Below, piece after piece: positions 615 to 34,716 of a stretch of DNA of 39,598 bases. Below the pieces are notes generated by a model. The model was not told the origin of the DNA. It did no database searches and was given only the letters and a program-made list of their open reading frames with translations. Location of the stretch: IMG/VR virus record IMGVR_UViG_3300008952_000119, positions 1 to 39,598 of that record; one strand, 5' to 3'. Made by a program: the position numbers and the translations under genes. The stretch is from a virus. Numbering within the stretch: the stretch's first letter is position 1; the number at the start of each line of letters is the position of its first letter.

Positions 615-1394
615 TTAGTCTGCAAATGCTCCTACCGCTTCCCAGTTAATATTAAATAGTGGGATCACCCATATAAAGTTCTCTAAAACCTGTCGTCCGA
701 AATGAGTTTCACCTACTTCTAATGCCATCACCCATCCAATTAGATTCCCACTTGCGGAAAAGACACCAGCACCCGAAGAGCCCGACCATCCATACGAGTC
801 TACGAACAACGCCTCGGTCTCACTATAAGCTACAATTTTACCATCAAAAGTATAGGGGCCGCCATTATTAGGGTAACCTGTATAGTAAATGGTGTTCATG
901 GTAGCCAAGTCGCTGACCCACTCGCTGCGTCTGGGAATATCATATATAATATTGATGGGCACCAGATCGGGAATAGGATCTACTCGAATTATCATATAAT
1001 CGGTTTGAGGATCCCGCAATACATACTGTTTACAAACATACAAGGCGTCTCCCACGATAATTTGCGTGAGGGCGCATGCCTCACCGATGCCATGCGATGT
1101 AGTGAGAATAAAATACTTTCCTTCATAAGTAATATAGGTGCCACTTGACCCTGAAATTCCTCCATCATAAAGGTCAACCGACATTACCTGCACGGCGCTT
1201 TGGCGTGACTTAATGACTGCCTTTTTTTCCTCAAAAGATAAAGTCTCTCCCACATTTACAAGCTTATTAATTTCGCTCTCCGTGGGAAGTGCTATAGATC
1301 GTTGAGCGCTGTCGTATGCTCCGAGGATGCTCGCGGCGCCGATTAAAACACAAAAAATAAATCCTGGAAGCTGTTTTAATGCCTTCTTGAGCAT
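615..1394 (-). CDS. Exported trypsin-like serine protease
   Basis: This 259-aa protein starts with a basic N-terminus and a hydrophobic segment (about residues 10-26) that looks like a signal peptide or signal anchor, so the protease is predicted to act in the envelope or outside the cell. The chymotrypsin-fold triad is visible: H101 in TTSHGIG, D132 in TDYMIIRVD and S207 in GWSGSSGAGVF. The glycines around S207 match the GxSG-G oxyanion signature. Length and spacing fit a minimal S1/HtrA-type catalytic domain with no PDZ domain. An AAGGAGA ribosome-binding site lies 8 nt before the ATG. It follows the 1215-aa protein gene. Its role could be superinfection exclusion, envelope processing or virion maturation; the sequence does not say which. 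Confidence 0.8.
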   Translation of the reverse strand: MLKKALKQLPGFIFCVLIGAASILGAYDSAQRSIALPTESEINKLVNVGETLSFEEKKAVIKSRQSAVQVMSVDLYDGGISGSSGTYITYEGKYFILTTSHGIGEACALTQIIVGDALYVCKQYVLRDPQTDYMIIRVDPIPDLVPINIIYDIPRRSEWVSDLATMNTIYYTGYPNNGGPYTFDGKIVAYSETEALFVDSYGWSGSSGAGVFSASGNLIGWVMALEVGETHFGRQVLENFIWVIPLFNINWEAVGAFAD

Positions 1395-1406: not shown

Positions 1407-4400
1407 TTATACTTGTCTCTGGTAACTCAAGAAAACCGGCACCTCCTCCAGGCCCGACTTTTTAGCGAACCAAAGAAGATCTTCATTTCCTGTTATCTTT
1501 ATTCTCCCGTTTTTTCCTATGGCCACATATACTGGACCTTGTGCGCCGTCTTTGATAAACGCTTGATAGGCTTGTGGATCGTTTAACTGATCCTTTAACC
1601 GTTGGTAAACCGAATCAAAGCGTTGATGTTTAATATCGAAAATATCCATGGGGTAGCGATGGACGCGTGACCGGTACGTCCACAATTCTTCCGTAGGCAA
1701 CATAGTATGATAGCGCATGTCATTTGCGTCCGTAGGAACATCATAGACTTGAACGCCGCCTTCTGCCCAGTCTTGCGTAATATGATCTAAAGTCGGAGTG
1801 GGCGTTGGGCGCGGAGCAGTCGCATTGTCGCGCACATTTCCTAAGTTTCGTGCCAAGCCTCCAAAATTGGAAAGCCCAAACGCACTTCCAAACCCGGATT
1901 CATTAAGGTTCATCTCGCGCACGGTTCGGATAGTGCCTTGCACATTGGTCTTGTGAATGGCACTCCAGTCCACCAGACGCACGCCGGCAATTTGTCTCAT
2001 TTGCGGTAGCAGAACCAAGTCCCGATACTCTACACGACTCTGGGCGCCCACTAATTCAAACTTAATGTCGAAGACGACAAAGGTTTCAGTGGGGGTAATC
2101 TCTCGCTTGCTAGCAGCAATAGGACGCACGGTTGTGACTCCATCAATGCCACGGATCTGGGCGGCAATCTCAGCATCGGTGCCGCCGACGCGGTCAATGA
2201 GGTTGCACCCCACACGAATATTATAGATACGTAGATCATGGGCGGGATCGCGCAGTTTCTCTAATAGTTTCTCAACTCGATCTAGTTGGTTTTCTTCATA
2301 CCGCTCGGACGTCTCAATCCAAGGTGGCAGCTCTTCTGGAAGGTTAATGTTCTCGCGCATAGCTTCCGCGCCCCAATTTGCGCCCACCGATACTGGTTCA
2401 CCAACGGTGCCTCGTAGTGGTGTCGTTGTATGCACTTCGGCTTTTGGTTCGAAGGTAGCAGGTTTTGTGTTGGAAACGCCGGCATAATCGCGAACGATCA
2501 TACCAGTCGCACCTCGATATCGTAACTCCTCTTTTACATCTGCAACCCAGCTAGAAGGCTGCCCAAGCCGGCTCTGATCTCCTATTTGGGGGTTCAGATA
2601 TCTGAGAGCTAGTGATCCTTGTGACATTGGATAGAGATATTTGCGTTCGGCAACAGACCGCTCAACAGCGCCCATTTGATCCCAGCTTGCCTCAATCCAA
2701 GATGCCACCAGCATCCCAGCTTCTGCGTCGGTGTTGCCTTCTTCTGCTTGCTGGCTATAACGCCGGTTAATCACAGCAATCAAGGTTGTAGCACTACTTC
2801 CGTCTTGAATCCTTCTTTTGTTTTTTGCTGCTTCTTCTGCTGCTGCTTCAACCGCATAACTGATCAACTCATTCGCTGCTTCTTTGACTTCATCGGGGTT
2901 GTCGTTAAGATACTTAACGAAGTTTACTGTTCGCTCTATATCCTCGGCTGTATCGTTGGGATCAACGCCGATTGTTAACTTGTAAGAGACTGTTACGCCG
3001 GATAAGCCGCCACCATCGCGATAGTAGTGTGCTCTTGGTTGGATAATGAAGCGCATATCTCGCGCAAGCTCTAATACAGGTGGTATGGCTTTGTATGCTG
3101 CGCCAAAATCAAACTCGCCTTGTTGTGCGGCGGCTCTGTGCTTTTGTGCGTATTGTGCTGTGAGTTGTTGCGCCATTTGCTTGTTGAGATCGTCGCCCTC
3201 AAAACTAAGGTTATGTCGGGTTGTGCCTTGAATGTTTGGAAAGATTTGCCTAAAAACAGTTCTTTCTTCTCGATCAGCGGCATAGTAGAAAATGTCTGGT
3301 GGGAATTCTACATTTGCTTCTATGCTGTGAGCGCGCGCGCCTTCTTCGGTTGCAATTGGGAAGAACCAGAACTCGTGTTCGGATCCTTCATCGTCTTGAT
3401 ATGTTGACCAGTTTTCTAACTCGTCTTCGAGGTTTTTGAGGGTTTCCCTCTCGTGATCCCACGGGGTTTTGATGGCGTAACCTTCTGCTGCTAGTTTTGT
3501 GCGAATGCCTGCGACGATCTCTTTGTATTTGTCTTCGAACTGGAATCTGACTTCTCCTGCAAAATAGCTAAAGTCGTCGGGGTCTTGTGAGGTTTCGCCG
3601 CGAAGCATCATTCTCACGCGGAGGTGTGCGGTGGCTGCTGGTTCAAAATCCAGATCTGTGTTGGCAGGCGCTGGCCCAACGAGCATTGCAACATCATATT
3701 CTACTTCGTTGTCTTCTCCTGGGAGTTCGGATAGTATGTCGTCGATGCCGGATTCGTTCAGAAAATTTCGGGTTCGCTCGCCCCAGCTAGATGCTGGGAT
3801 GAAGTGAAGTTTATCGTTAACCTCGCGATCTTCTTGATCTACGTGTGCTGTCATCGGCACAAAGTCTCCATCAGCATCTACATCTAAGCCTAGCCAGCCA
3901 AGATTAACATCGAATGAACACTCGGCGCCGAAGTCGATATAGGGTTCATTATCATATTCTTCAACATTTGAATATACTGAACAGTTTTCGAGATCGCTGT
4001 ATTCTTGTTCGATGATCGCCAGTTGTTCTGCTATGTCGTTCATGCGATCTTCAAGCGAGCCGTTAAAGTTCACGCTTGGGTTTTCTGATTTGAGATGATC
4101 GATCATATATCGGAACTCGTCGGGATCGTTAGAATGTTCTCCGTTTTCTTCAACATACTCGACGCCAGCATTTTCAATAAACCAGCTAATGTGCTCCCAC
4201 ACAGATTCGGGGGGTGCGCTATTTGACCAACCTTTGATCTGATAGATTGTGTTTTCGAAATCATTATACGCTAGCGTTACATATGATTTAGACTGCTTCT
4301 TTCTTGCTTCCTTCTTGCGAAGGGAAATGAGGGTTCCGCGACTATCAGATCCGCAGTGCCCCATTCGTTCGCCTTCGACTGAGCAGTTTGATGTTTGCAA

Positions 4401-5054
4401 ATCATACCAATAAGAACCATCTTCAAAAGTGTGGATGACTTGATCTGGATCTTCTTGGTTATCTAGGTATTCTTGTGCTTTAGAGAGGGCTTCGTCGATA
4501 TTGCCTCCTTTCACATACTCGTAATTCGTTGGATCTTGATTAAGAAGCGTAAAAACCTCTTCATATTGGCGATAGAAGCGCTCATAAACGCTCTGCAGTT
4601 GAGCTTTTAAAAACTCTTGGCTAGCTTCGACTTGTTCGCTTTTCACGCCGGGCAACTTACTAAGGTTTTTCAACCCTTTCTTAAAGGTTTTTGCCCACGT
4701 TCCGAATGGCTTATCTCTGGTGGTTTGTGTTATATTTTTAATAACAAACATCGCTTTTTCTTTTTCTTCTTTTGACGAATCATCTTGCACGTGAGCGCCA
4801 AAGCGATCCATCAGATGATTAAGAATATTAAATCCGAATTCTTGGGAGCCGGGGGCATCGTGCCTGATAGCAAGGGTGCGAAGGGATGTGTTTTTCCACT
4901 GGTGTCCCATCCAAGTTTTGGCTTTTTCAGATGCGCCTGGGAGGTTGTTCTCGATCCGGTCGATAATTACTTCAGGTAACCCAATGTCTCTCAGCCCTTC
5001 GGTTAGAACCTCTTCGCGCAGATAGTTGAACCATTTATCGGTTGCGTAACTCAT
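1407..5054 (-). CDS. Large multidomain phage protein with PcfJ-like and ParB-like segments, 1215 aa
   Basis: This large protein of unknown function contains several separable segments. Residues 1-60 carry a motif (WFNYLREEVLTEGLRD) that resembles the helical start of several phage structural proteins. Residues 215-300 contain C-S-V-E-G-E-R-M-G-H-C-G, then an ISLR strand and a later Q-x-K-G-W-S-N stretch, a layout like the PcfJ family (EG..M.HC ... G..N). A ferredoxin-like alpha/beta segment (near YNIRVGCNLIDRVGGTD) precedes a Pro-rich linker. The last 75 residues (VYVAIGKNGRIKITGNEDLL to EVPVFLSYQ) look like a ParB/sulfiredoxin-fold domain in which the usual G-x-H-R box reads GNED. The middle is very acidic. 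No sigma70-type promoter precedes it; an ACTATTTAT element lies 21 nt before the start. It may be a virion or ejected protein, which is inference. Confidence 0.75.
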   Translation of the reverse strand: MSYATDKWFNYLREEVLTEGLRDIGLPEVIIDRIENNLPGASEKAKTWMGHQWKNTSLRTLAIRHDAPGSQEFGFNILNHLMDRFGAHVQDDSSKEEKEKAMFVIKNITQTTRDKPFGTWAKTFKKGLKNLSKLPGVKSEQVEASQEFLKAQLQSVYERFYRQYEEVFTLLNQDPTNYEYVKGGNIDEALSKAQEYLDNQEDPDQVIHTFEDGSYWYDLQTSNCSVEGERMGHCGSDSRGTLISLRKKEARKKQSKSYVTLAYNDFENTIYQIKGWSNSAPPESVWEHISWFIENAGVEYVEENGEHSNDPDEFRYMIDHLKSENPSVNFNGSLEDRMNDIAEQLAIIEQEYSDLENCSVYSNVEEYDNEPYIDFGAECSFDVNLGWLGLDVDADGDFVPMTAHVDQEDREVNDKLHFIPASSWGERTRNFLNESGIDDILSELPGEDNEVEYDVAMLVGPAPANTDLDFEPAATAHLRVRMMLRGETSQDPDDFSYFAGEVRFQFEDKYKEIVAGIRTKLAAEGYAIKTPWDHERETLKNLEDELENWSTYQDDEGSEHEFWFFPIATEEGARAHSIEANVEFPPDIFYYAADREERTVFRQIFPNIQGTTRHNLSFEGDDLNKQMAQQLTAQYAQKHRAAAQQGEFDFGAAYKAIPPVLELARDMRFIIQPRAHYYRDGGGLSGVTVSYKLTIGVDPNDTAEDIERTVNFVKYLNDNPDEVKEAANELISYAVEAAAEEAAKNKRRIQDGSSATTLIAVINRRYSQQAEEGNTDAEAGMLVASWIEASWDQMGAVERSVAERKYLYPMSQGSLALRYLNPQIGDQSRLGQPSSWVADVKEELRYRGATGMIVRDYAGVSNTKPATFEPKAEVHTTTPLRGTVGEPVSVGANWGAEAMRENINLPEELPPWIETSERYEENQLDRVEKLLEKLRDPAHDLRIYNIRVGCNLIDRVGGTDAEIAAQIRGIDGVTTVRPIAASKREITPTETFVVFDIKFELVGAQSRVEYRDLVLLPQMRQIAGVRLVDWSAIHKTNVQGTIRTVREMNLNESGFGSAFGLSNFGGLARNLGNVRDNATAPRPTPTPTLDHITQDWAEGGVQVYDVPTDANDMRYHTMLPTEELWTYRSRVHRYPMDIFDIKHQRFDSVYQRLKDQLNDPQAYQAFIKDGAQGPVYVAIGKNGRIKITGNEDLLWFAKKSGLEEVPVFLSYQRQV

Positions 5055-5096: not shown

Positions 5097-5447
5097 TTAC
5101 TTCCAAAAGAGTTGGACTGCTATAATAAGGCACGACAAGAAGATGCACGTTAAGGTTTTGCTGGTGAACATACTTTCATTTAACAAAGCATACGTTAAAA
5201 TAGGAAACACAAAGTAAGAAGCGGCAAATCCAACAAACCTTGCCGACCACGCTGCACCAGTCTCTTCAAAAATCAACCTAGATGCATGCCAAAAGCATAG
5301 CCCTACAGGAATAGAATAAATCCCTACCGCTACAAATGGCCGGTCACGCCACCACTCCCATACAAATTGGGAATTAAGCTGAAACCATGCACACATATGG
5401 CCTAAAATAAAAAAGCCAATTCCTGCTATCATATTAAAGGTTGGCAA
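5097..5447 (-). CDS. Small four-helix integral membrane protein, TTG start
   Basis: This 116-aa hydrophobic protein has four predicted membrane segments (about residues 5-22, 40-56, 67-88 and 97-114) joined by short polar loops. It looks like a small DMT-type membrane protein; its substrate or partner is unknown. The start is decided by the ribosome-binding site: AAGGAGGTGG at 5451-5460 lies 6 nt before a TTG at 5445-5447, whereas the first ATG (5430-5432) is 21 nt away. The TTG overlaps the stop region of the upstream Dam-like gene by 14 nt. Phage proteins of this type may modify the host membrane or resemble holins; the sequence alone does not show which. Confidence 0.7.
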   Translation of the reverse strand: MPTFNMIAGIGFFILGHMCAWFQLNSQFVWEWWRDRPFVAVGIYSIPVGLCFWHASRLIFEETGAAWSARFVGFAASYFVFPILTYALLNESMFTSKTLTCIFLSCLIIAVQLFWK

Positions 5448-6991: not shown

Positions 6992-8566
6992 TTACTCCGT
7001 TTGTATAATCCCGAAATTTGTAGTAATCAAAGTGCCAGCGCAACTAGCGGCGTTTTGCAACGCGGTGCGCGTGACCTTCACGGGATCAATTACTCCACTC
7101 TCATATAAATTGGTAAGTTCGCCTTTGCGGAAATCCCATCCGTCACCATCCGGCGCACTTAAAACTTGTTCTACTATTAAATCTGGAGATGCTCCAGCAT
7201 TTAATGCCATTTGTCGAATAGGCTCTTTACACGCCTCTTTAATAATGGAGATACCCAAAGCCTGATCGCTATTGTCCAAGGAGGAGAAGTTAATATCTTT
7301 AGCGGCGCGCAACAACGCGGTGCCTCCTCCAACCACAATCCCTTCGTCTTGGGCTGAGGTAACAGCCTCAAGAGCATCTTCAATACGATGCTTCTTCTCG
7401 GTCATCTCAACTTCCGTGGCTCCTCCGACGCGAATAACTCCCACTCCTGACGCTAGGCGAACAATTCTGGCCTGGATGCTTTCTCCTTCTTGGATTGAAT
7501 CTGTAGCCTTGATAGTTTCTTTGAGGCTCGCGATCTTATTTTCAATCTCTTCGAAGTCAGCGTTTCCACCAATAATCGTCGTAGTATACTTAGTGCTCTC
7601 TATAGAATTTGCACTCCCAAGATGTTGAAGCTTCACATCAGCCAACTTTACGCCGCTTTCGCGAGTAATAAAGGTGGCGCCAACTGACAATGCTAAGTCT
7701 TGCAGTGTGGTGCGGCGCTCCTCTCCATAAGACGGAGCTTTAATTGCAGCGATCTTTAATGTCCCACGCATGGCATTCATAATCATGGCTGCGAGGGCTT
7801 GGCCTTCAATGTCTTCGGAGATAACCACGAGGGGGCGCCCTTCTCTTGCAACGAGTTCTAGCAACGGCAGGATGGGTTCTACATTCGAAATCTTGTAGTC
7901 ACTTACAAAAATCAGGGGCTCCTCATATTTCATGACGGCCCTCCGCTCATCTGTAATGAATGCGCCGGCGCAATATCCTGCGTCAAAGCGAAACCCCTCG
8001 GTAAGATCCAGGGACGTTTCCAGTGAGCGGGATTCTTCTATTGTAATAGATCCATCTTGGCCCACCCGATCCACAGCAAGAGCAATAAGGTCTCCAATTG
8101 TAGAATCATTATTGGCCGAAATAGTTGCGATATGTGCGATATCGTCTGTGCTTGTAACTGGCGTAGCCATGGCTTCCAGGTTCTTTGTAATCTCTTTAAC
8201 TGCAACTTCAATTCCTCTTTGTAGTTCTATAGGCGATACCCCAGTAGCAATGTACCGCTGGGATTCTCGCAAAATAGCGCGAGCCAACACAGTCGCGGTG
8301 GTCGTGCCATCGCCTGCGTCGGTGTTGGTTTGTATGGCGGCCTGTTTAATAACTTGGGCAGCGGCATTCTCAAAGGGGTCGTCTAACGCCACAAAGTGTG
8401 CGACAGTTACGCCGTCCTTTGTAATAAAAGGAGTTCGCCCCTTCTCCTGTAAGAGAACGTTTCGACCGCGTGGACCCAAAGTGGATGCTACGTTATCGGC
8501 CAGGGCGTTCACCCCGTTCATAATCTTCTGCTGTAACTCAGTTTGGCTAGTATAAGCTCTGCTCAA
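6992..8566 (-). CDS. groEL: Phage-encoded GroEL chaperonin (Hsp60)
   Basis: At 524 aa this is a near full-length group I chaperonin. Hallmarks are TLGPRGRNV at 29-37 (ATP binding), D51 in TKDGVTV, D86 in AGDGTTTATVLA, the IEDAL segment holding the ATPase aspartate, GGGTAL, and the C-terminal SAPDGDGWDF and GVIDPVKVTRTAL. The flexible GGM tail of bacterial GroEL is missing; the protein ends in IIQTE. It should form an ATP-driven folding chamber, perhaps for capsid or tail proteins. A perfect consensus promoter lies just upstream, so the gene heads its own transcript. A GroES-like gene exists at 23195-23479, not adjacent. Known parallels are the chaperonins of some large phages. Identification is secure; whether it works with the phage or host GroES is unknown. 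Confidence 0.97.
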   Translation of the reverse strand: MSRAYTSQTELQQKIMNGVNALADNVASTLGPRGRNVLLQEKGRTPFITKDGVTVAHFVALDDPFENAAAQVIKQAAIQTNTDAGDGTTTATVLARAILRESQRYIATGVSPIELQRGIEVAVKEITKNLEAMATPVTSTDDIAHIATISANNDSTIGDLIALAVDRVGQDGSITIEESRSLETSLDLTEGFRFDAGYCAGAFITDERRAVMKYEEPLIFVSDYKISNVEPILPLLELVAREGRPLVVISEDIEGQALAAMIMNAMRGTLKIAAIKAPSYGEERRTTLQDLALSVGATFITRESGVKLADVKLQHLGSANSIESTKYTTTIIGGNADFEEIENKIASLKETIKATDSIQEGESIQARIVRLASGVGVIRVGGATEVEMTEKKHRIEDALEAVTSAQDEGIVVGGGTALLRAAKDINFSSLDNSDQALGISIIKEACKEPIRQMALNAGASPDLIVEQVLSAPDGDGWDFRKGELTNLYESGVIDPVKVTRTALQNAASCAGTLITTNFGIIQTE

Positions 8567-10118: not shown

Positions 10119-10760
10119 TTATATAATAATATCAGCAATACCTAGCTCGACTGCTTCTTCTGCTGATAAATAGACATTAACTTTGCGTTCGAGCATCTTT
10201 TTCAATCGTGATTTGGTCAGTTTTGTTTCGGATACTAAACAATCAATGAACATTTGTTGTAGTTGCTCAATGGCTTCCATTTCATTTAACATGTTGTGCA
10301 AGTCTCCTTGGTTGCCTCCGACGACTGAATGGATCATGATCCGACAGTTCTTTGCAATCTTGCGTTCGCCTTCGGTGCCGGCAGCCAAGATTAATACTCC
10401 CGCCGACATTACCTTGCCAAGCCCAACAGTATGAAGAGGCGTGCGTTCACGTACCACCCTCATTACATCATACAGGGCAAACATATCGTCAGCGGAGCCT
10501 CCGTAGGTAGAGATATAAAAATCGATAGGTTCTATATCTTTGGGGTCTTTGTGTTTATTAAGATCATTAGCATACAAAAGCGCATGCACTAATTCTCCTA
10601 TTTTTTCTTCTACTACTTCTGCGAATAATCCTACCATAGGAGCCGCTTCTTGCTCGGGCTCTTTTAATTGCGAAGGATCAAAAAAAATTAAATTCTTTTC
10701 TTCTTCTTCCTCCAAGTCAGTGATAAAGGTGGTGAGCGCTTTCTTAATTCGTTTAATCAT
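10119..10760 (-). CDS. ClpP-like serine protease (paralogue 1, altered triad)
   Basis: This 213-aa protein is of ClpP length and fold. The nucleophile is S119 in GKVMSAGVLILAAG and the base is H144 in RIMIHSVVGG. The glycine-rich strand ISTYGGSADDM precedes them. The acidic triad residue, normally the Asp of the D-x-F-L-S segment, aligns with N195 in NVYLSAEEA, so the triad is Ser-His-Asn. The first 35 residues are a charged, Glu-rich extension. In phages such proteins can be prohead maturation proteases or regulatory proteases; no ClpX/ClpA partner is seen here. The start overlaps the upstream membrane-protein gene by 8 nt. Family membership is clear; activity is uncertain because of the Asn. 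Confidence 0.92.
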   Translation of the reverse strand: MIKRIKKALTTFITDLEEEEEKNLIFFDPSQLKEPEQEAAPMVGLFAEVVEEKIGELVHALLYANDLNKHKDPKDIEPIDFYISTYGGSADDMFALYDVMRVVRERTPLHTVGLGKVMSAGVLILAAGTEGERKIAKNCRIMIHSVVGGNQGDLHNMLNEMEAIEQLQQMFIDCLVSETKLTKSRLKKMLERKVNVYLSAEEAVELGIADIII

Positions 10761-11247: not shown

Positions 11248-12087
11248 TTATTTTGCTGTTAAACGATTGAAGATACGTTCAGCCAATTGATTGGCCATAT
11301 CTTCGCTCTTCTGGTCCGCCATCAAGCGCGCTGCTACGCGGCGAGACACTTCAGCTACAATCTCTTCTTGATTAAGCTCTTCCATCTGCGCGCGAGTTTC
11401 ACCAGCGCGACCGGCATCATATGCGCTATCTTGGGTTTGATCACCACACTCTACACGGTTGCCGTCAGAATCATAGCATTTCTTCCCAGCGCGCTGAGTA
11501 CGAGGGGAGCGAGGGTCTGGAGCCTTAGCTGCAGCATACGCCTCATCGATATCCTCTTCCTCTTCCTTCAACCAGCGGCCTGTAGCCTTGTTCGCCACAT
11601 CGCTCCGGTCTTGCTTGCCGGCCTTCGTGGAAGAAGCTGCTCCGGATGCCTTGGGAGTGTTCCAACCCTCCTGATATAAATCAGAGTTGCCGGGTACCTC
11701 TTCTTCGGCGCCAAATTCCATTTCGACGTCATCGCCAGGGCCTTCTAATTCTGCTGCGCCGACTTCAAGTTCTTCTTCACCCCCTTCTTCGCCGTCTACG
11801 CCTAAGTCCATGTCTACGCCATGTTGTTCGCCCCAGTCTTGAATGTGTTGGAGCAAGTCCACAACGAGTTCTTCAGCTTCTCCGCCTTCCTCGCCTTCCA
11901 TACCTGCGTCATCAAGCGGAACCTCGTCCTCAACGGCTCCTACTTCTAATTCATCTTCGACTTCTAATTCGTCTTCTTGTTCATCTAGCGGATTATTGGT
12001 AAAATAATTCTCACTTAATGGAGCGAGATCGGCTAGTTTCATGAATTTCCTAACCTCGCCCTCTGTTAACAGTTTGTTACGAGCCAT
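11248..12087 (-). CDS. Highly acidic protein, probable virion scaffold/structural protein
   Basis: This 279-aa protein opens with a conserved-looking helical motif (LLTEGEVRKFMKLADLAPLSENYF), then has about 110 residues of Glu/Asp/Gly-rich low complexity (repeats around ELEVEDELEVGAVEDE). A charged linker and a C-terminal helix (residues 235-278, QEEIVAEVSRRVAARLMADQ...) end the protein. The short N-terminal motif resembles those of phage virion or prohead core proteins, and the extreme acidity fits a scaffold; both points are inference. No TTGACA promoter precedes it; an ACTATTTAT element lies 39 nt before the ATG, as for the 1215-aa gene. The + strand frame over it is an Arg/Leu-rich artefact. 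Confidence 0.75.
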   Translation of the reverse strand: MARNKLLTEGEVRKFMKLADLAPLSENYFTNNPLDEQEDELEVEDELEVGAVEDEVPLDDAGMEGEEGGEAEELVVDLLQHIQDWGEQHGVDMDLGVDGEEGGEEELEVGAAELEGPGDDVEMEFGAEEEVPGNSDLYQEGWNTPKASGAASSTKAGKQDRSDVANKATGRWLKEEEEDIDEAYAAAKAPDPRSPRTQRAGKKCYDSDGNRVECGDQTQDSAYDAGRAGETRAQMEELNQEEIVAEVSRRVAARLMADQKSEDMANQLAERIFNRLTAK

Positions 12088-31496: not shown

Positions 31497-32334
31497 GAGT
31501 ATTTTCTTGTATTGCGTTAGTGTGGGCAACGCAGAACCCAAAGTCATCATGTTCTGTTTCATAAATTGCATAAGAAATCTTGCGAAAAGTATTTTTAGGC
31601 TTTTCTTTAAGCTTATCAACCAACTGTTTGTGTAAGCCGCCTTCGGTGGCCAATCTCTCTTCGTTTATACATATATAATAACACAACTCACGGGGGTTGT
31701 CAAGGTCAAAAAGCCATTTTTCTTCTAAAGAATTAACGTCCAACATTCCCAAGGTTCTAATGCGATGGATAGCTGCCGGCTTGGAGACTTGGCCAATTTC
31801 TGGCTCGCTAAATTCAAAGTAGTTTAAATAATGAATAGTGGAAAAGATAAACTCATTCAGCATTTCATAATAGTTTTTAATAGGCACTTCGCCCAAGGCT
31901 TCTTCTAGTTTTAGATTAGATATTAACGTAATCGAACTAAACAATCCCGAACGTGCATACTCCTGGAGCACCCCGAAAGTGACGCGTTCTAAAAGCTGGG
32001 GAGTCCCGGTCAATAACTCGATGTCGGGGCGGATATAAAATAAATCTATTTTTTTATCTTTGATCTGCTCTAGAATTCCTAGGGTATAATTAGAACTCAT
32101 CGATGAGCCCATAACAAATACCTGGACGCGTTCTCTTATATTGGCGAACACTTTCTCTAAATTAGGAATGTTTTCCTCATAAGCTTCGGGGTCGCCAAGC
32201 CTCTTGAGCTTAATTTTAAATTTACTATTGCGGGCCACGTTGGTGTTTAGCGAATAAACTTCATAGTTCTCCATACCAGAAAACTTTTCTGCAATAGCCG
32301 ATGCGGCATTCCCTATTCCAATTACTGAAATCAT
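31474..32334 (-). CDS. Divergent tubulin/FtsZ-like protein with degenerate GTP-binding loop
   Basis: The 286-aa protein follows the FtsZ/tubulin element order. MISVIGIGNAASAIAEKF is the T1 nucleotide loop and helix, YEVYSLNTN (24-32) matches the second strand ending N-T-D in FtsZ, and VQVFVMGSSMSSNYT (70-84) lies where G-G-G-T-G-T-G should be. LFYIRP is the next strand, and RVTFGVLQEYARSGLFSSITLISNLKLEEAL (117-147) resembles the helix and N-x-x-L segment of FtsZ. A helix MLNEFIFSTIHYLN follows at 158-171. The glycine box is degraded, so GTP hydrolysis may be lost or changed. It overlaps the polymerase gene by ATGA. Fold assignment is inference from pattern, not from a search. Confidence 0.72.
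   Translation of the reverse strand: MISVIGIGNAASAIAEKFSGMENYEVYSLNTNVARNSKFKIKLKRLGDPEAYEENIPNLEKVFANIRERVQVFVMGSSMSSNYTLGILEQIKDKKIDLFYIRPDIELLTGTPQLLERVTFGVLQEYARSGLFSSITLISNLKLEEALGEVPIKNYYEMLNEFIFSTIHYLNYFEFSEPEIGQVSKPAAIHRIRTLGMLDVNSLEEKWLFDLDNPRELCYYICINEERLATEGGLHKQLVDKLKEKPKNTFRKISYAIYETEHDDFGFCVAHTNAIQENTLDKEEQE
31675..31703 (-). promoter_or_regulatory. Candidate promoter inside the tubulin-like gene
   Basis: TTGACA (31698-31703), a 17-nt spacer and TATTAT (31675-31680), preceded by GT. It is within coding sequence (LDNPRELCYY). It could be a second promoter for ssb or chance. Confidence 0.45.
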
Positions 32335-33515
32335 ATCTTTAACTCTTGAAGTTCATAATAATTCTTTCCACAATTTAAGTTAACCATAAAGGTGTCCAAA
32401 AGATTATTAGCAAAAATTTCTTTTAGCTGGGGGACTAGTGGGCGGTCTTCGTCTGCGAGATCGATCACCACTTCATCATGCACAATGTGAGAGATAAACG
32501 ACTTCTTTCCTTCTAAGAATACGTCTACTGCGCAGGCACGTTCCAGGACTAAATCGGCTGTAGTGCTTTGAATCAAATAGTTTAAAGCCTTGCGCGGTTC
32601 AACTTGTATACGGCGCTTAAACACTGTCTTAATATACCCTTTATCATACCATTTGTCAAGAACTTTTTCGCGATGATAAATACTAAATTCACTGTTCGCT
32701 GCATCCGGGTTGTAAAGCCATGCAAAAAATTGAGTCTTGGCGTCGTCACGATCTATCTCTCCTTGAATAAGGTTTTTGATATGCCACTCGTGCACGTCTT
32801 CTTGTGGTTGTTTCTCTCCAGCCAACGCGATAAAGGTTCGTACTTCCGCAGCGTTATAATCCAATGACAAAAACCAGTCATTGTGAGGTTTTAACAATTT
32901 TCTAAATTCTTTTTGCGTAGTGAGTACCGGAAAACTTTGTGAATAGGTGGTGAGCCTTCCTGTAACAGTTCCAAATAAATTATAATCTATATAATTGGGC
33001 CCACTTAACAACAGCTTGGCTCTTCTAGAATCACGAGAGGATAAGTGTAGATTTTTACACCCCTCGTTGTTTAAGTTCAAAGGCTGATAGCGTATCTTAT
33101 ATAAAAGCTTTTCAATATTGTGCAAGTGTTCGTAGCATTCAGGTTTTGTGTGCGTCTCAAAAACATACTCCGTAATTTTGTTTTTGATCTCGCAAAACTC
33201 TTTAAGAAAATCTTCCGGGACCAGATCAAAAATGCAGTGGTCTCGCATGCTTACTTTGGCAATCTGAAAAGATTTAATGTAAGCCCTCAACCGTTTTTGT
33301 GCTCTCTTGAGAACGTCTTGGAGTTCCGGCGGGCATACCTGATTCAATGCTAGCCCCTCTGCGTACAACCATGCGTAGTCTGTGGTGGTGTCGACCAACG
33401 ACCCAGAATATTTCCAAGTCTTGGTTAGATTCTCCGGAAAGTTTTCATAATAAAGTTTCCCGTCTGTATAAATGCCTATGCATTCAGATTTGTCATCAAT
33501 AGCCTGAAATATCAT
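32331..33515 (-). CDS. Compact family A DNA polymerase (Pol I-like) without exonuclease domain
   Basis: From the ATG at 33513-33515 the protein has 394 aa. The polymerase motifs are complete: GTVTGRLTT (about 182-190), motif A LSLDYNAAEVRTF with D219, motif B R256-x3-K-x3-F-x3-Y268 (the O-helix spacing of Pol I), the L-N-Y-L-I-Q-S-T-T-A-D-L helix, and motif C H346-D347-E-V. The N-terminal 150 residues are helical; there is no 3'-5' or 5'-3' exonuclease domain. The longer TTG-start frame is rejected because the TTG overlaps the -35 box of the promoter, whose start point would lie inside it. Together with Pol III alpha it may act in primer removal, repair or strand displacement, which is inference. 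Confidence 0.9.
   Translation of the reverse strand: MIFQAIDDKSECIGIYTDGKLYYENFPENLTKTWKYSGSLVDTTTDYAWLYAEGLALNQVCPPELQDVLKRAQKRLRAYIKSFQIAKVSMRDHCIFDLVPEDFLKEFCEIKNKITEYVFETHTKPECYEHLHNIEKLLYKIRYQPLNLNNEGCKNLHLSSRDSRRAKLLLSGPNYIDYNLFGTVTGRLTTYSQSFPVLTTQKEFRKLLKPHNDWFLSLDYNAAEVRTFIALAGEKQPQEDVHEWHIKNLIQGEIDRDDAKTQFFAWLYNPDAANSEFSIYHREKVLDKWYDKGYIKTVFKRRIQVEPRKALNYLIQSTTADLVLERACAVDVFLEGKKSFISHIVHDEVVIDLADEDRPLVPQLKEIFANNLLDTFMVNLNCGKNYYELQELKI
32631..32659 (-). promoter_or_regulatory. Candidate promoter inside the family A polymerase gene
   Basis: TTGACA (32654-32659), a 17-nt spacer and TATATT (32631-32636) within codons for VLDKWYDKGYIK. It could drive the tubulin-like gene, which starts about 300 nt downstream. 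Confidence 0.5.
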
Positions 33516-34716
33516 CCCGCACCAAACGTCTATATCTTTCAATATAACTCGCTGAGCCCCGATAGTCAAATGTTTTATTTAAAATTCTTTCAAATATTAG
33601 CAACGAGGCTCGTACTCCTATCTGTTCGGCAGCCCGCAAGCAATCGTTGATAAGCATCTCGCGCTCATTGATAGAAAATTCAGATTCTTCCTCAAGAAAA
33701 CGGAGATGACAATATATGCGTAAAAAATAAGCTTCATTAAATTCTGCTTGTATCTCTTCTAATGTATAAGACAAGGGAATAACCATTTTGCGACGGACTT
33801 TTCCATTACACTCTTCATAGCTATAAAACGAGCCGTACTTTACCATGTTATATAAACGGAGGAGAATCGAACTAAAGTTTTCAAAATATTTATTGTGCGA
33901 ATGTTCATAATTATTGTGAAGGACTGCGGCGGTTGTAGGAGAATAATATTTAGCCGAGAGTTCTAACATTCCAGGCGCATCAATATCACATACAATGCGC
34001 CAAGGGACGAATTGATCTACCATAAAGCCGTAGTCGTTGCATGCGTTAACATAAAAAGCCCAGTTCTTGCTGTTCACAAATTGATTTATCTTTTCATCGT
34101 CGTTGACAGGATCCAGATCTGCTATCTCAATAGCCAAACCACTCGTCATAATGCTGCAGCGTCGGCTCTTGATATATGCAGGCTTGGTGAAGGGGATCGT
34201 GTGCAATGTTCTTTCAAGATATACCACCAGATGTTGCATGAACTCTTTAAAGTCTCTTACCTTGATCTTATCAGCATCGAAGAGATCTTTCAAGGTGTTT
34301 AAATAAATATCTAAGTAATCGGCGTACAAAGACTCATGACTAACGTGTGCTTTGTGAACCTGCAGGCTGCTCAAGAAAGAATCCTGCGTGTCAATAATGC
34401 CCTTGGCGGCGCATTTCTCAAACTCCAACGCCATTTGTTCAAAAGCATCTACCACGAAGGAAAGAGCTTCATAACTCTGCGAAGCGCCGGCGCTAGAACG
34501 AAAGCCTTTAAAGCCGGCGAACAAAGCGGCTTCGCGGGGATTGCGGGTTTGAATGGGAACAAAGAATCGGTCGACGCGGCCAAAGAGATACTTCTCTCCT
34601 AAGTTGAAATCCACAAGATTCCGGGCCTGTCCCGCTAACTGCATTCTATACATTAAACGCTTCATGAATAATGTTCTGGTTGGTTCGTGGTTTGTGTTGG
34701 TATAAAAAGTTGACAT
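33496..34716 (-). CDS. Hypothetical protein, probable virion-associated, 406 aa
   Basis: No known domain is recognised. The N-terminus (STFYTNTNHEPTRTLFMKRLMYRM) and a basic NLGEKYLFGRVDRFFVPI stretch are followed by a largely helical, aromatic-rich body with many Tyr and Asn. It lies directly downstream of the 1267-aa structural gene (6-nt gap), which suggests a virion or assembly role. It does not resemble the missing exonuclease domain of the next gene's polymerase, so the pair is not a split polA. The end of the gene holds the promoter of the polymerase gene. Confidence 0.7.
   Translation of the reverse strand: MSTFYTNTNHEPTRTLFMKRLMYRMQLAGQARNLVDFNLGEKYLFGRVDRFFVPIQTRNPREAALFAGFKGFRSSAGASQSYEALSFVVDAFEQMALEFEKCAAKGIIDTQDSFLSSLQVHKAHVSHESLYADYLDIYLNTLKDLFDADKIKVRDFKEFMQHLVVYLERTLHTIPFTKPAYIKSRRCSIMTSGLAIEIADLDPVNDDEKINQFVNSKNWAFYVNACNDYGFMVDQFVPWRIVCDIDAPGMLELSAKYYSPTTAAVLHNNYEHSHNKYFENFSSILLRLYNMVKYGSFYSYEECNGKVRRKMVIPLSYTLEEIQAEFNEAYFLRIYCHLRFLEEESEFSINEREMLINDCLRAAEQIGVRASLLIFERILNKTFDYRGSASYIERYRRLVRDDISGY
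33541..33569 (-). promoter_or_regulatory. Sigma70 promoter of the family A polymerase gene
   Basis: TTGACT (33564-33569), a 17-nt spacer and TATATT (33541-33546) preceded by GT, located in the last codons of the 406-aa gene. The expected start point lies about 20 nt before the polymerase ATG at 33515. Confidence 0.78.

What the first reader, a model, noticed from the sequence alone, without database searches (positions are those of the whole stretch)
1407..5054. 1215-aa mosaic protein with PcfJ-like and terminal ParB-like segments
A C-x-x-E-G-x-x-M-x-H-C motif with a following G-W-S-N segment, a ferredoxin-like region and a ParB/sulfiredoxin-type C-terminus are combined in one very acidic protein. 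I know no phage protein with this exact combination.
Basis: partly seen in the sequence, partly recalled or inferred. Interest (0 to 1): 0.55.

Follow-up and report, generated by a model that had tools for sequence, protein, structure and literature searches.

The report
Swappable phage protein, probably head-packaged
A large protein family of uncultured, largely marine T4-like viruses of bacteria keeps its start and end but swaps its front domain, and its start resembles the tag that T4 uses to load proteins into its head, so it may be a set of proteins injected into the host with the viral DNA.

Summary
The ORF is real: minus strand, 1215 aa, pI 4.78. It is not a one-off. It belongs to an unnamed family: 144 IMG/VR matches to its N module, of which 80 were fetched, and none in 50,697 named phages at full length. 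It sits at one conserved locus (TM protein upstream, trypsin-like protease downstream) in T4-type phages of up to about 200 kb. The N module is a remote PcfJ relative by profile comparison and by fold search.

New here: (1) The family is modular. A conserved leader (M....WF.YL.E) and C module frame an exchangeable front domain. Class I is PcfJ-like, class II is strongly diverged or unrelated, and minimal forms are leader plus C module only. The C-module tree needs 6 class changes, 5 of them forced. (2) The leader resembles a T4 capsid-targeting sequence: aromatic-x2-aromatic, then an [L/I]xE|[G/A] site in 82 of 82 class I proteins. A gp21-type protease is found in a relative, and similar leaders recur on other ORFs of these phages.

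Best reading: an internal head protein delivered into the host. Virion presence, cleavage and ejection are inferred, not shown.

The parts
1407..5054 (-). whole CDS, 1215 aa, stop codon included
   Evidence: colinear ORFs in all 48 loci
4998..5054 (-). leader, residues 1-19 (..DKWFNYLREEVLTE): putative capsid-targeting sequence; predicted cut E19|G20
   Evidence: E19 invariant and G20 at least 90% in 67 rows; [LIVM]xE[GA] in 82 of 82 class I leaders; helix 2-16 of lower confidence, then a break
4458..4997 (-). helical region, residues 20-199
   Evidence: AlphaFold2 model, mean pLDDT 91.5 for residues 1-360
4035..4460 (-). PcfJ-like domain, residues 199-340, acetyltransferase-like (GNAT) topology
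   Evidence: profile match, BFVD fold match, VIA Z 5.1-6.7 to acetyltransferases
4350..4385 (-). C224-x2-E227-G-x-R230-M-G-H233-C234-G235 motif
   Evidence: invariant or at least 90% conserved in 67 rows
4221..4241 (-). QIKGWSN, residues 272-278 (Q, K, G, N invariant)
   Evidence: aligns with the Q..G..N of bona fide PcfJ proteins
2241..4007 (-). middle region, residues 350-938, shared with class II, replaced in group B
   Evidence: profile of residues 350-1215 hits class II ORFs; no hit of group B middles by blastp
1917..2240 (-). ferredoxin-like domain, residues 939-1046 (IRGIxGVTTVR)
   Evidence: Foldseek 2x3d probability 1.00; VIA 3bpd Z 10.6, rmsd 3.1, 89 aligned
1410..1802 (-). ParB/sulfiredoxin-like C-terminal domain, residues 1085-1215
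615..1394 (-). conserved downstream neighbour: trypsin-like protease
   Evidence: Pfam PF13365, E 5.2e-9; its cluster is in 35 of 49 loci and next to class II ORFs too
5097..5447 (-). conserved upstream neighbour: small hydrophobic protein
   Evidence: cluster in 45 of 49 loci

Best explanation
It is a modular internal head (ejection) protein of an uncultured, largely marine T4-like phage clade. Inferred mechanism: the N-terminal leader, about 19 residues, docks the protein to the scaffold core of the prohead like a T4 capsid-targeting sequence. The gp21-type prohead protease cuts after LTE (E19|G20). The roughly 136-kDa mature protein is packed with the DNA and passes into the host at infection. 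The front domain, PcfJ-like with an acetyltransferase-like fold in class I, acts on a host target and is swapped between phages. The ferredoxin-like plus ParB/sulfiredoxin-like C module is the constant part, perhaps for docking or for handling nucleic acid. Shown: family, modules, repeated class switches, conserved leader, PcfJ relationship, ferredoxin-like fold. Inferred: packaging, cleavage, ejection, enzymatic activity, target.
For: (a) Leader: [LIVM]xE[GA] in 82 of 82 class I leaders with varying x (LTEG 51, LDEG 8, LIEG 5, ITEG 5, others 13), and kept in class II and in the two minimal forms as M....W...[LI]. (b) The leader motif framed on two records was applied unchanged to three unseen ones: 10 of 711 ORFs at the N terminus against 4 of 2652 internal windows, p 7e-5; without the two family hits 8 of 709, p 8e-4. 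(c) The T4-spaced form of the pattern hits 2 of 36 annotated CDS in a T4 stretch, exactly IpII and IpIII; IpI has F..F and a later ITEA, the arrangement of class I. (d) Peptidase_S77 (gp21 type), E 3.2e-30, in relative G011; T4 gp23 and gp20 families in 10 of 12 records, the two misses being short. (e) Front domains are exchanged at one locus; the C-module tree needs 6 class I/II changes, 5 forced by starred branches, and the window groups with class II L137 in a starred set of five. [quoted passage not shown] (f) PcfJ relationship.
Against: No proteomics. The gene is not in the head cluster: in G011 the capsid gene is at 134-136 kb and this gene at 183-187 kb. Only 4 of 17 class II leaders have [LIVM]xE[GA] (one of the 17 is not a true N terminus), though 16 of 17 have [LI]xE. 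LxE is a loose motif. The other leader-bearing ORFs are not known virion proteins. The protein is acidic, whereas passages read of PMC9026906 call T4 IpI-III basic. The pattern used was chosen after searches had been seen.
Confidence: 0.55

Rival explanations
1. A non-virion protein made in the infected cell, for example an early anti-defence or host-takeover protein; the leader is an ordinary N-terminal helix.
For: No direct virion evidence; the neighbours (chaperonin, DNA-methyltransferase-like, HAD and cupin genes) are mostly not structural. Swapped front domains fit an arms race without packaging.
Against: The leader and E[GA] site are conserved across classes while the fold behind them changes; similar leaders recur on other ORFs and match T4 internal-protein leaders.
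Confidence: 0.25
2. A structural or scaffold component of head, neck or tail, with the C module as an assembly domain and the front domain as decoration.
For: One copy in each of 11 of 12 records with the N module and 12 of 12 with the C module; large, acidic and conserved; close to an acidic LTEG-leader protein and a ClpP-like protease.
Against: Recurrent replacement or loss of the front domain and 264- to 283-aa minimal forms are unusual for an essential structural part; invariant Cys, His, Glu, Arg, Gln and Lys clusters look like an active site.
Confidence: 0.12
3. A C-terminal-module-driven DNA-partition-like (ParB) or nuclease protein that travels with replicated DNA.
For: ParB-like profile and sulfiredoxin-like fold hints.
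Against: The ParB GERR motif reads GNED; the profile score is only modestly above shuffles; Pfam ParB_N finds nothing in three whole relatives.
Confidence: 0.05

Closest known systems
T4 internal head proteins IpI, IpII, IpIII and Alt (capsid-targeting-sequence proteins)
   Same: short leader with aromatic-x2-aromatic-hydrophobic pattern and [I/L]xE|[A/G]; diverse cargo behind a conserved leader; T4-type portal, capsid and prohead protease in the clade
   Different: 1215 aa and acidic; conserved C module; exchangeable PcfJ-like front; packaging and cleavage untested
PcfJ-like proteins (PF14284)
   Same: EG..M.HC, SLR and Q..G..N segments in the same order; fold match
   Different: MGHCG in place of HCV; below Pfam's cut-off; inside a much larger protein with leader and C module
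Salicola phage SCTP-2 gene 31 product (735 aa, hypothetical)
   Same: shares C...E...MGHCG, S-F-R and MKGYAN segments; its length equals that of the best BFVD match A0A248SJ20, identity of the two inferred from length
   Different: no match to the C module was found; 30% identity over 73% of the 99-aa query, E 0.8
GNAT acetyltransferases
   Same: strand-helix order and alignment over residues 199-340 (VIA Z up to 6.7)
   Different: Q-I-K-G-x-S instead of the (Q/R)xxGx(G/A) signature (recalled); no CoA-binding evidence; Z below 8
Giant-phage ejection proteins (SPN3US, phiKZ)
   Same: internal proteins with propeptides cut after Glu by a gp21 relative (passages of PMC5694885)
   Different: much longer propeptides; no sequence relation tested

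Membership tests
T4-type capsid-targeted internal head protein | short N-terminal leader of the T4 type with a Glu cleavage site | tested here: met
   (pattern only)
T4-type capsid-targeted internal head protein | gp21-type protease and T4-type capsid and portal in the same phages | tested here: met
   10 of 12 records; protease in one relative; the 39.6-kb window itself does not hold these genes
T4-type capsid-targeted internal head protein | present in the virion, cleaved after LxE, ejected into the host | not testable with these tools
   needs proteomics of a cultured member
PcfJ (PF14284) | score above Pfam's gathering cut-off | tested here: not met
   5 of 40 members hit, best E 0.019; 2 of 10 records hit at E 0.0013-0.0017, none over cut-off
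PcfJ (PF14284) | conserved HC, SLR-like and Q..G..N segments in order | tested here: met
   a Planctomycetota PcfJ protein over cut-off is itself found by the family profile
GNAT acetyltransferase | GNAT fold | tested here: inconclusive
   VIA Z 5.1-6.7; 29 of the 50 rows cover residues from about 199 on, all acetyltransferases by title or, for PanZ and AtaT, by recall; Foldseek E above 0.3
GNAT acetyltransferase | (Q/R)xxGx(G/A) acyl-CoA motif (recalled) | tested here: not met
   Q272-I-K-G275-W-S: the last position is Ser
ParB/sulfiredoxin superfamily | ParB/sulfiredoxin fold | tested here: inconclusive
   Foldseek 6ky4 probability 0.98, E 0.19; hhalign 27.2 against at most 18.3 in 20 shuffles
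ParB/sulfiredoxin superfamily | GERR (ParB) signature | tested here: not met
   aligned residues are GNED

The most novel reading that the evidence does not exclude
Uncultured, largely marine T4-like phages carry one dedicated locus for a recombining, capsid-delivered effector: a targeting leader and a constant C module frame exchangeable enzyme-like front domains, one of which is a PcfJ-type domain with an acetyltransferase fold. This would give PcfJ domains a first functional context and make the family a polymorphic injected-effector system built on T4 head assembly.
Probability: 0.3. Interest if true: 0.78.

Novelty: new variant of a known kind. Interest (0 to 1): 0.6.

Why it matters
T4 internal proteins are small and known mainly from coliphages. 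A family with 144 IMG/VR matches to its N module and a swappable front domain would mean that capsid-borne delivery of variable effectors is widespread in uncultured phages. It also gives a sequence rule (leader W..[FY][LIV].E[AGS]) for listing candidate injected proteins in T4-like metagenome phages, and a fold hypothesis for PcfJ, a domain with no solved relative found here.

Tried and rejected
Pfam and PHROGs on the full protein: only weak chance-like hits. PDB by sequence, single protein and profiles: nothing credible. Full-length search in IMG/VR: no pattern match, because patterns were taken over the whole length; the 99-aa motif segment worked. Named phages at full length: none; with the 99-aa segment 4 weak matches at E 0.8 to 10. 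Paralogues in the window: none by profile; only two ClpP-like ORFs match each other. Foldseek of the N model against PDB: no match at E 0.001. VIA top hits on residues 63-165 (8ub7_C Z 8.2 and others) dropped as common helical bundles. The idea that inter-module LxE sites cut the protein into pieces: such sites are scattered and inconsistent, dropped. Class II as an entirely unrelated front domain: softened, because a 21-column C..EG....HC...SRG match to class I scores 55 against at most 18.8 in 10 shuffles; PcfJ against class II gives nothing (13.1). Literature: 'pcfj-like protein' 0 papers, PcfJ with Pfam as whole words 0, PcfJ with phage 24, of which the 15 shown were mostly C. elegans plasmid names by title; no paper on this family came up. 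Not used: padloc and ncbifam libraries, the Rfam scan, RNA models.

Rows dropped before counts: class I/II leader counts leave out ORFs cut at the 5' end and L051; the tree leaves out ORFs with incomplete C modules and identical segments, and two truncated rows carry no class.
Full report
What is there. The ORF lies on the minus strand, 1407-5054, 1215 aa. The window is an IMG/VR record of 39,598 bases. Its other genes include a chaperonin, class II ribonucleotide reductase, DnaB helicase, exonuclease, a UvsX/RecA-like recombinase, a gp32-like protein and DNA polymerase III alpha.

Relatives. The full-length protein found nothing in named phages, and a full-length pattern scan of IMG/VR found nothing either. 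The 99-residue motif segment found 48 IMG/VR loci at 55-79% identity in the best segment. All carry a colinear ORF; those not cut by a locus end run from 960 to 1490 aa. Profiles of the N module (A1) and the C module (A2) found 144 and 91 relatives, of which 80 each were fetched. Among bacterial and archaeal genomes only two loci came up: L050, in a Verrucomicrobiota MAG, a full family member; and L051, in a Planctomycetota MAG, a PcfJ protein.

Locus. Clustering of neighbours gives one gene order around the family gene: acidic protein, membrane protein, ClpP-like protease, variable gene, chaperonin, small genes, methyltransferase-like gene, small hydrophobic protein, family gene, trypsin-like protease (48 loci plus window, some loci truncated). 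Ten of 12 records searched have the T4 capsid and portal families; the two without are short. The nearest named capsid proteins include Flavobacterium phage immuto and Microcystis phage Mel-JY01, at 45-47% identity over 59-66% of the query.

Modules. Of 105 non-redundant ORFs, 59 intact ones hold both N and C modules, one of them (L026) with the N module twice. Sixteen intact ones hold only the C module. Of these 16, 13 are 1293-1685 aa, keep the leader and the shared middle and C regions but have another front domain with a SCH..G....C motif; two (L176, 264-residue frame; L186, 283) are leader plus C module only; one (L187) is a 378-residue fragment with a 3-kb gap to the upstream gene. All sit at the same locus where the flank is held. 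One set of class I proteins (group B) has a middle that shows no blastp match to the window's. On a quick C-module tree of 76 rows the class I/II label needs 6 changes, 5 forced by starred branches, against a shuffled mean of 13.9 (class I label); the window lies in a starred set of five with the class II protein L137. Class switching is therefore recurrent. Whether class II is a replacement or extreme divergence is open: a 21-column C..EG....HC...SRG profile match to class I scores 55 against at most 18.8 in 10 shuffles.

PcfJ. Pfam's PcfJ model reaches 5 of 40 members weakly and 2 of 10 records below cut-off, at the right place. Profile-profile comparison with 12 Planctomycetota PcfJ proteins gives 49.5, E 1.9e-6, probability 89.6, against at most 18.9 in 20 column shuffles; without L246, the PcfJ protein that our own search had also found, 42.1, E 2.6e-5. 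The AlphaFold2 model of residues 1-360 (mean pLDDT 91.5) has no PDB match at E 0.001. In BFVD its best match is a 735-residue protein at E 2.4e-7, followed by several PcfJ-like phage proteins. The length equals that of Salicola phage SCTP-2 gene 31, whose translation carries MGHCG, SFR and MKGYAN. A second look with VIA gives acetyltransferases over residues 199-340 at Z 5.1-6.7. All 29 of 50 rows on that region are acetyltransferases by title or, for PanZ and AtaT, by recall. Z under 8 may be only a common arrangement, so this is a hypothesis.

C module. Residues 939-1046 are ferredoxin-like (VIA Z 10.6 and 10.4). The last 130 residues are ParB/sulfiredoxin-like with weak support and without the GERR residues. 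The model of residues 350-1215 has mean pLDDT 77.2 and pTM 0.51.

Leader. Class I leaders carry [LIVM]xE[GA] in 82 of 82 cases, class II [LI]xE in 16 of 17 and [LIVM]xE[GA] in 4 of 17. In records G001 and G011 a W-based leader motif occurs in the first 45 residues of 3 of 240 and 4 of 245 ORFs, against 0 of 823 and 1 of 918 internal windows; that motif was shaped by looking at these two records. Applied unchanged to three further records it gives 10 of 711 against 4 of 2652, p 7e-5, and without family members 8 of 709, p 8e-4. A stricter pattern with the spacing of T4 IpII and IpIII gives 11 of 1192 non-family ORFs in the five records against 5 of 6702 internal windows, p 1.9e-6; it was chosen after the earlier looks and orthologues are not independent. 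In a 28-kb T4 stretch the strict pattern picks 2 of 36 CDS, IpII and IpIII, and misses IpI, which has F..F and a later ITEA. A T4 record annotates the ten-residue leader of IpII and IpIII as removed. Passages of PMC9026906 place targeting mainly at residues 4 and 7 and processing at 8 and 10 of the IpIII leader. Passages of PMC5694885 describe 10-20-residue T4 leaders and cutting after Glu. Passages of PMC3012670 describe T-even internal proteins as diverse defence proteins with only a conserved targeting sequence. A Peptidase_S77 protein is present in G011 (E 3.2e-30).

Judgement. The family, its modularity, the repeated class switching, the PcfJ relationship and the ferredoxin-like fold are shown by computation. 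Packaging, cleavage, ejection and activity are inferred. Size is not a bar in principle: the abstract of PMC12633501, seen in the listing, describes a virion RNA polymerase of about 3,500 residues that enters the cell. Confidence in the injected internal-protein reading is 0.55.

Noticed in passing
L226:12058-12516 (G011) and G001:98317-98766: A NUDIX hydrolase (PF00293, E 1.8e-17 in G011) starts with the same kind of leader (W..FL.E[GS]), as if it too were a head-targeted enzyme.
   Followed up: partly
L237:2895-3863 (G011); cluster 11 in 29 of 49 loci: A nucleotidyltransferase-like protein (weak Pfam matches) downstream of the family gene begins MSFDKWREFLAEA, another candidate leader.
   Followed up: partly
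window 11248-12087: Very acidic protein with N terminus MARNKLLTEGEVRKFM; its cluster is in 23 of 49 loci and the LTEG resembles the N terminus of the clade's capsid protein (MxxIIxRLTEGVV).
   Followed up: no
window 6992-8566 and 10119-10760: A phage chaperonin (48 of 49 loci) and ClpP-like proteases (47 of 49 loci) are fixed neighbours of the family gene.
   Followed up: no
L026:7425-11897: One family member (1490 aa) carries the N module twice, both with MGHCG and an LTEG/ITEG site.
   Followed up: partly
L186 and L176: Minimal members: leader fused directly to the C module, with no front domain or middle.
   Followed up: partly
L187:2511-5578: The C-module ORF is only 378 aa, with about 3 kb between it and the upstream gene; possibly a frame-broken class II gene or an assembly error.
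   Followed up: no
window 32331-33569 and 33496-34716: Only part of a family A DNA polymerase matches Pfam in the first ORF (residues 302-405) and nothing in the adjoining, overlapping ORF; possibly a split polymerase.
   Followed up: no
L050: A full family member on a contig binned in an Opitutia MAG (Verrucomicrobiota); probably a phage contig, a possible host hint.
   Followed up: no
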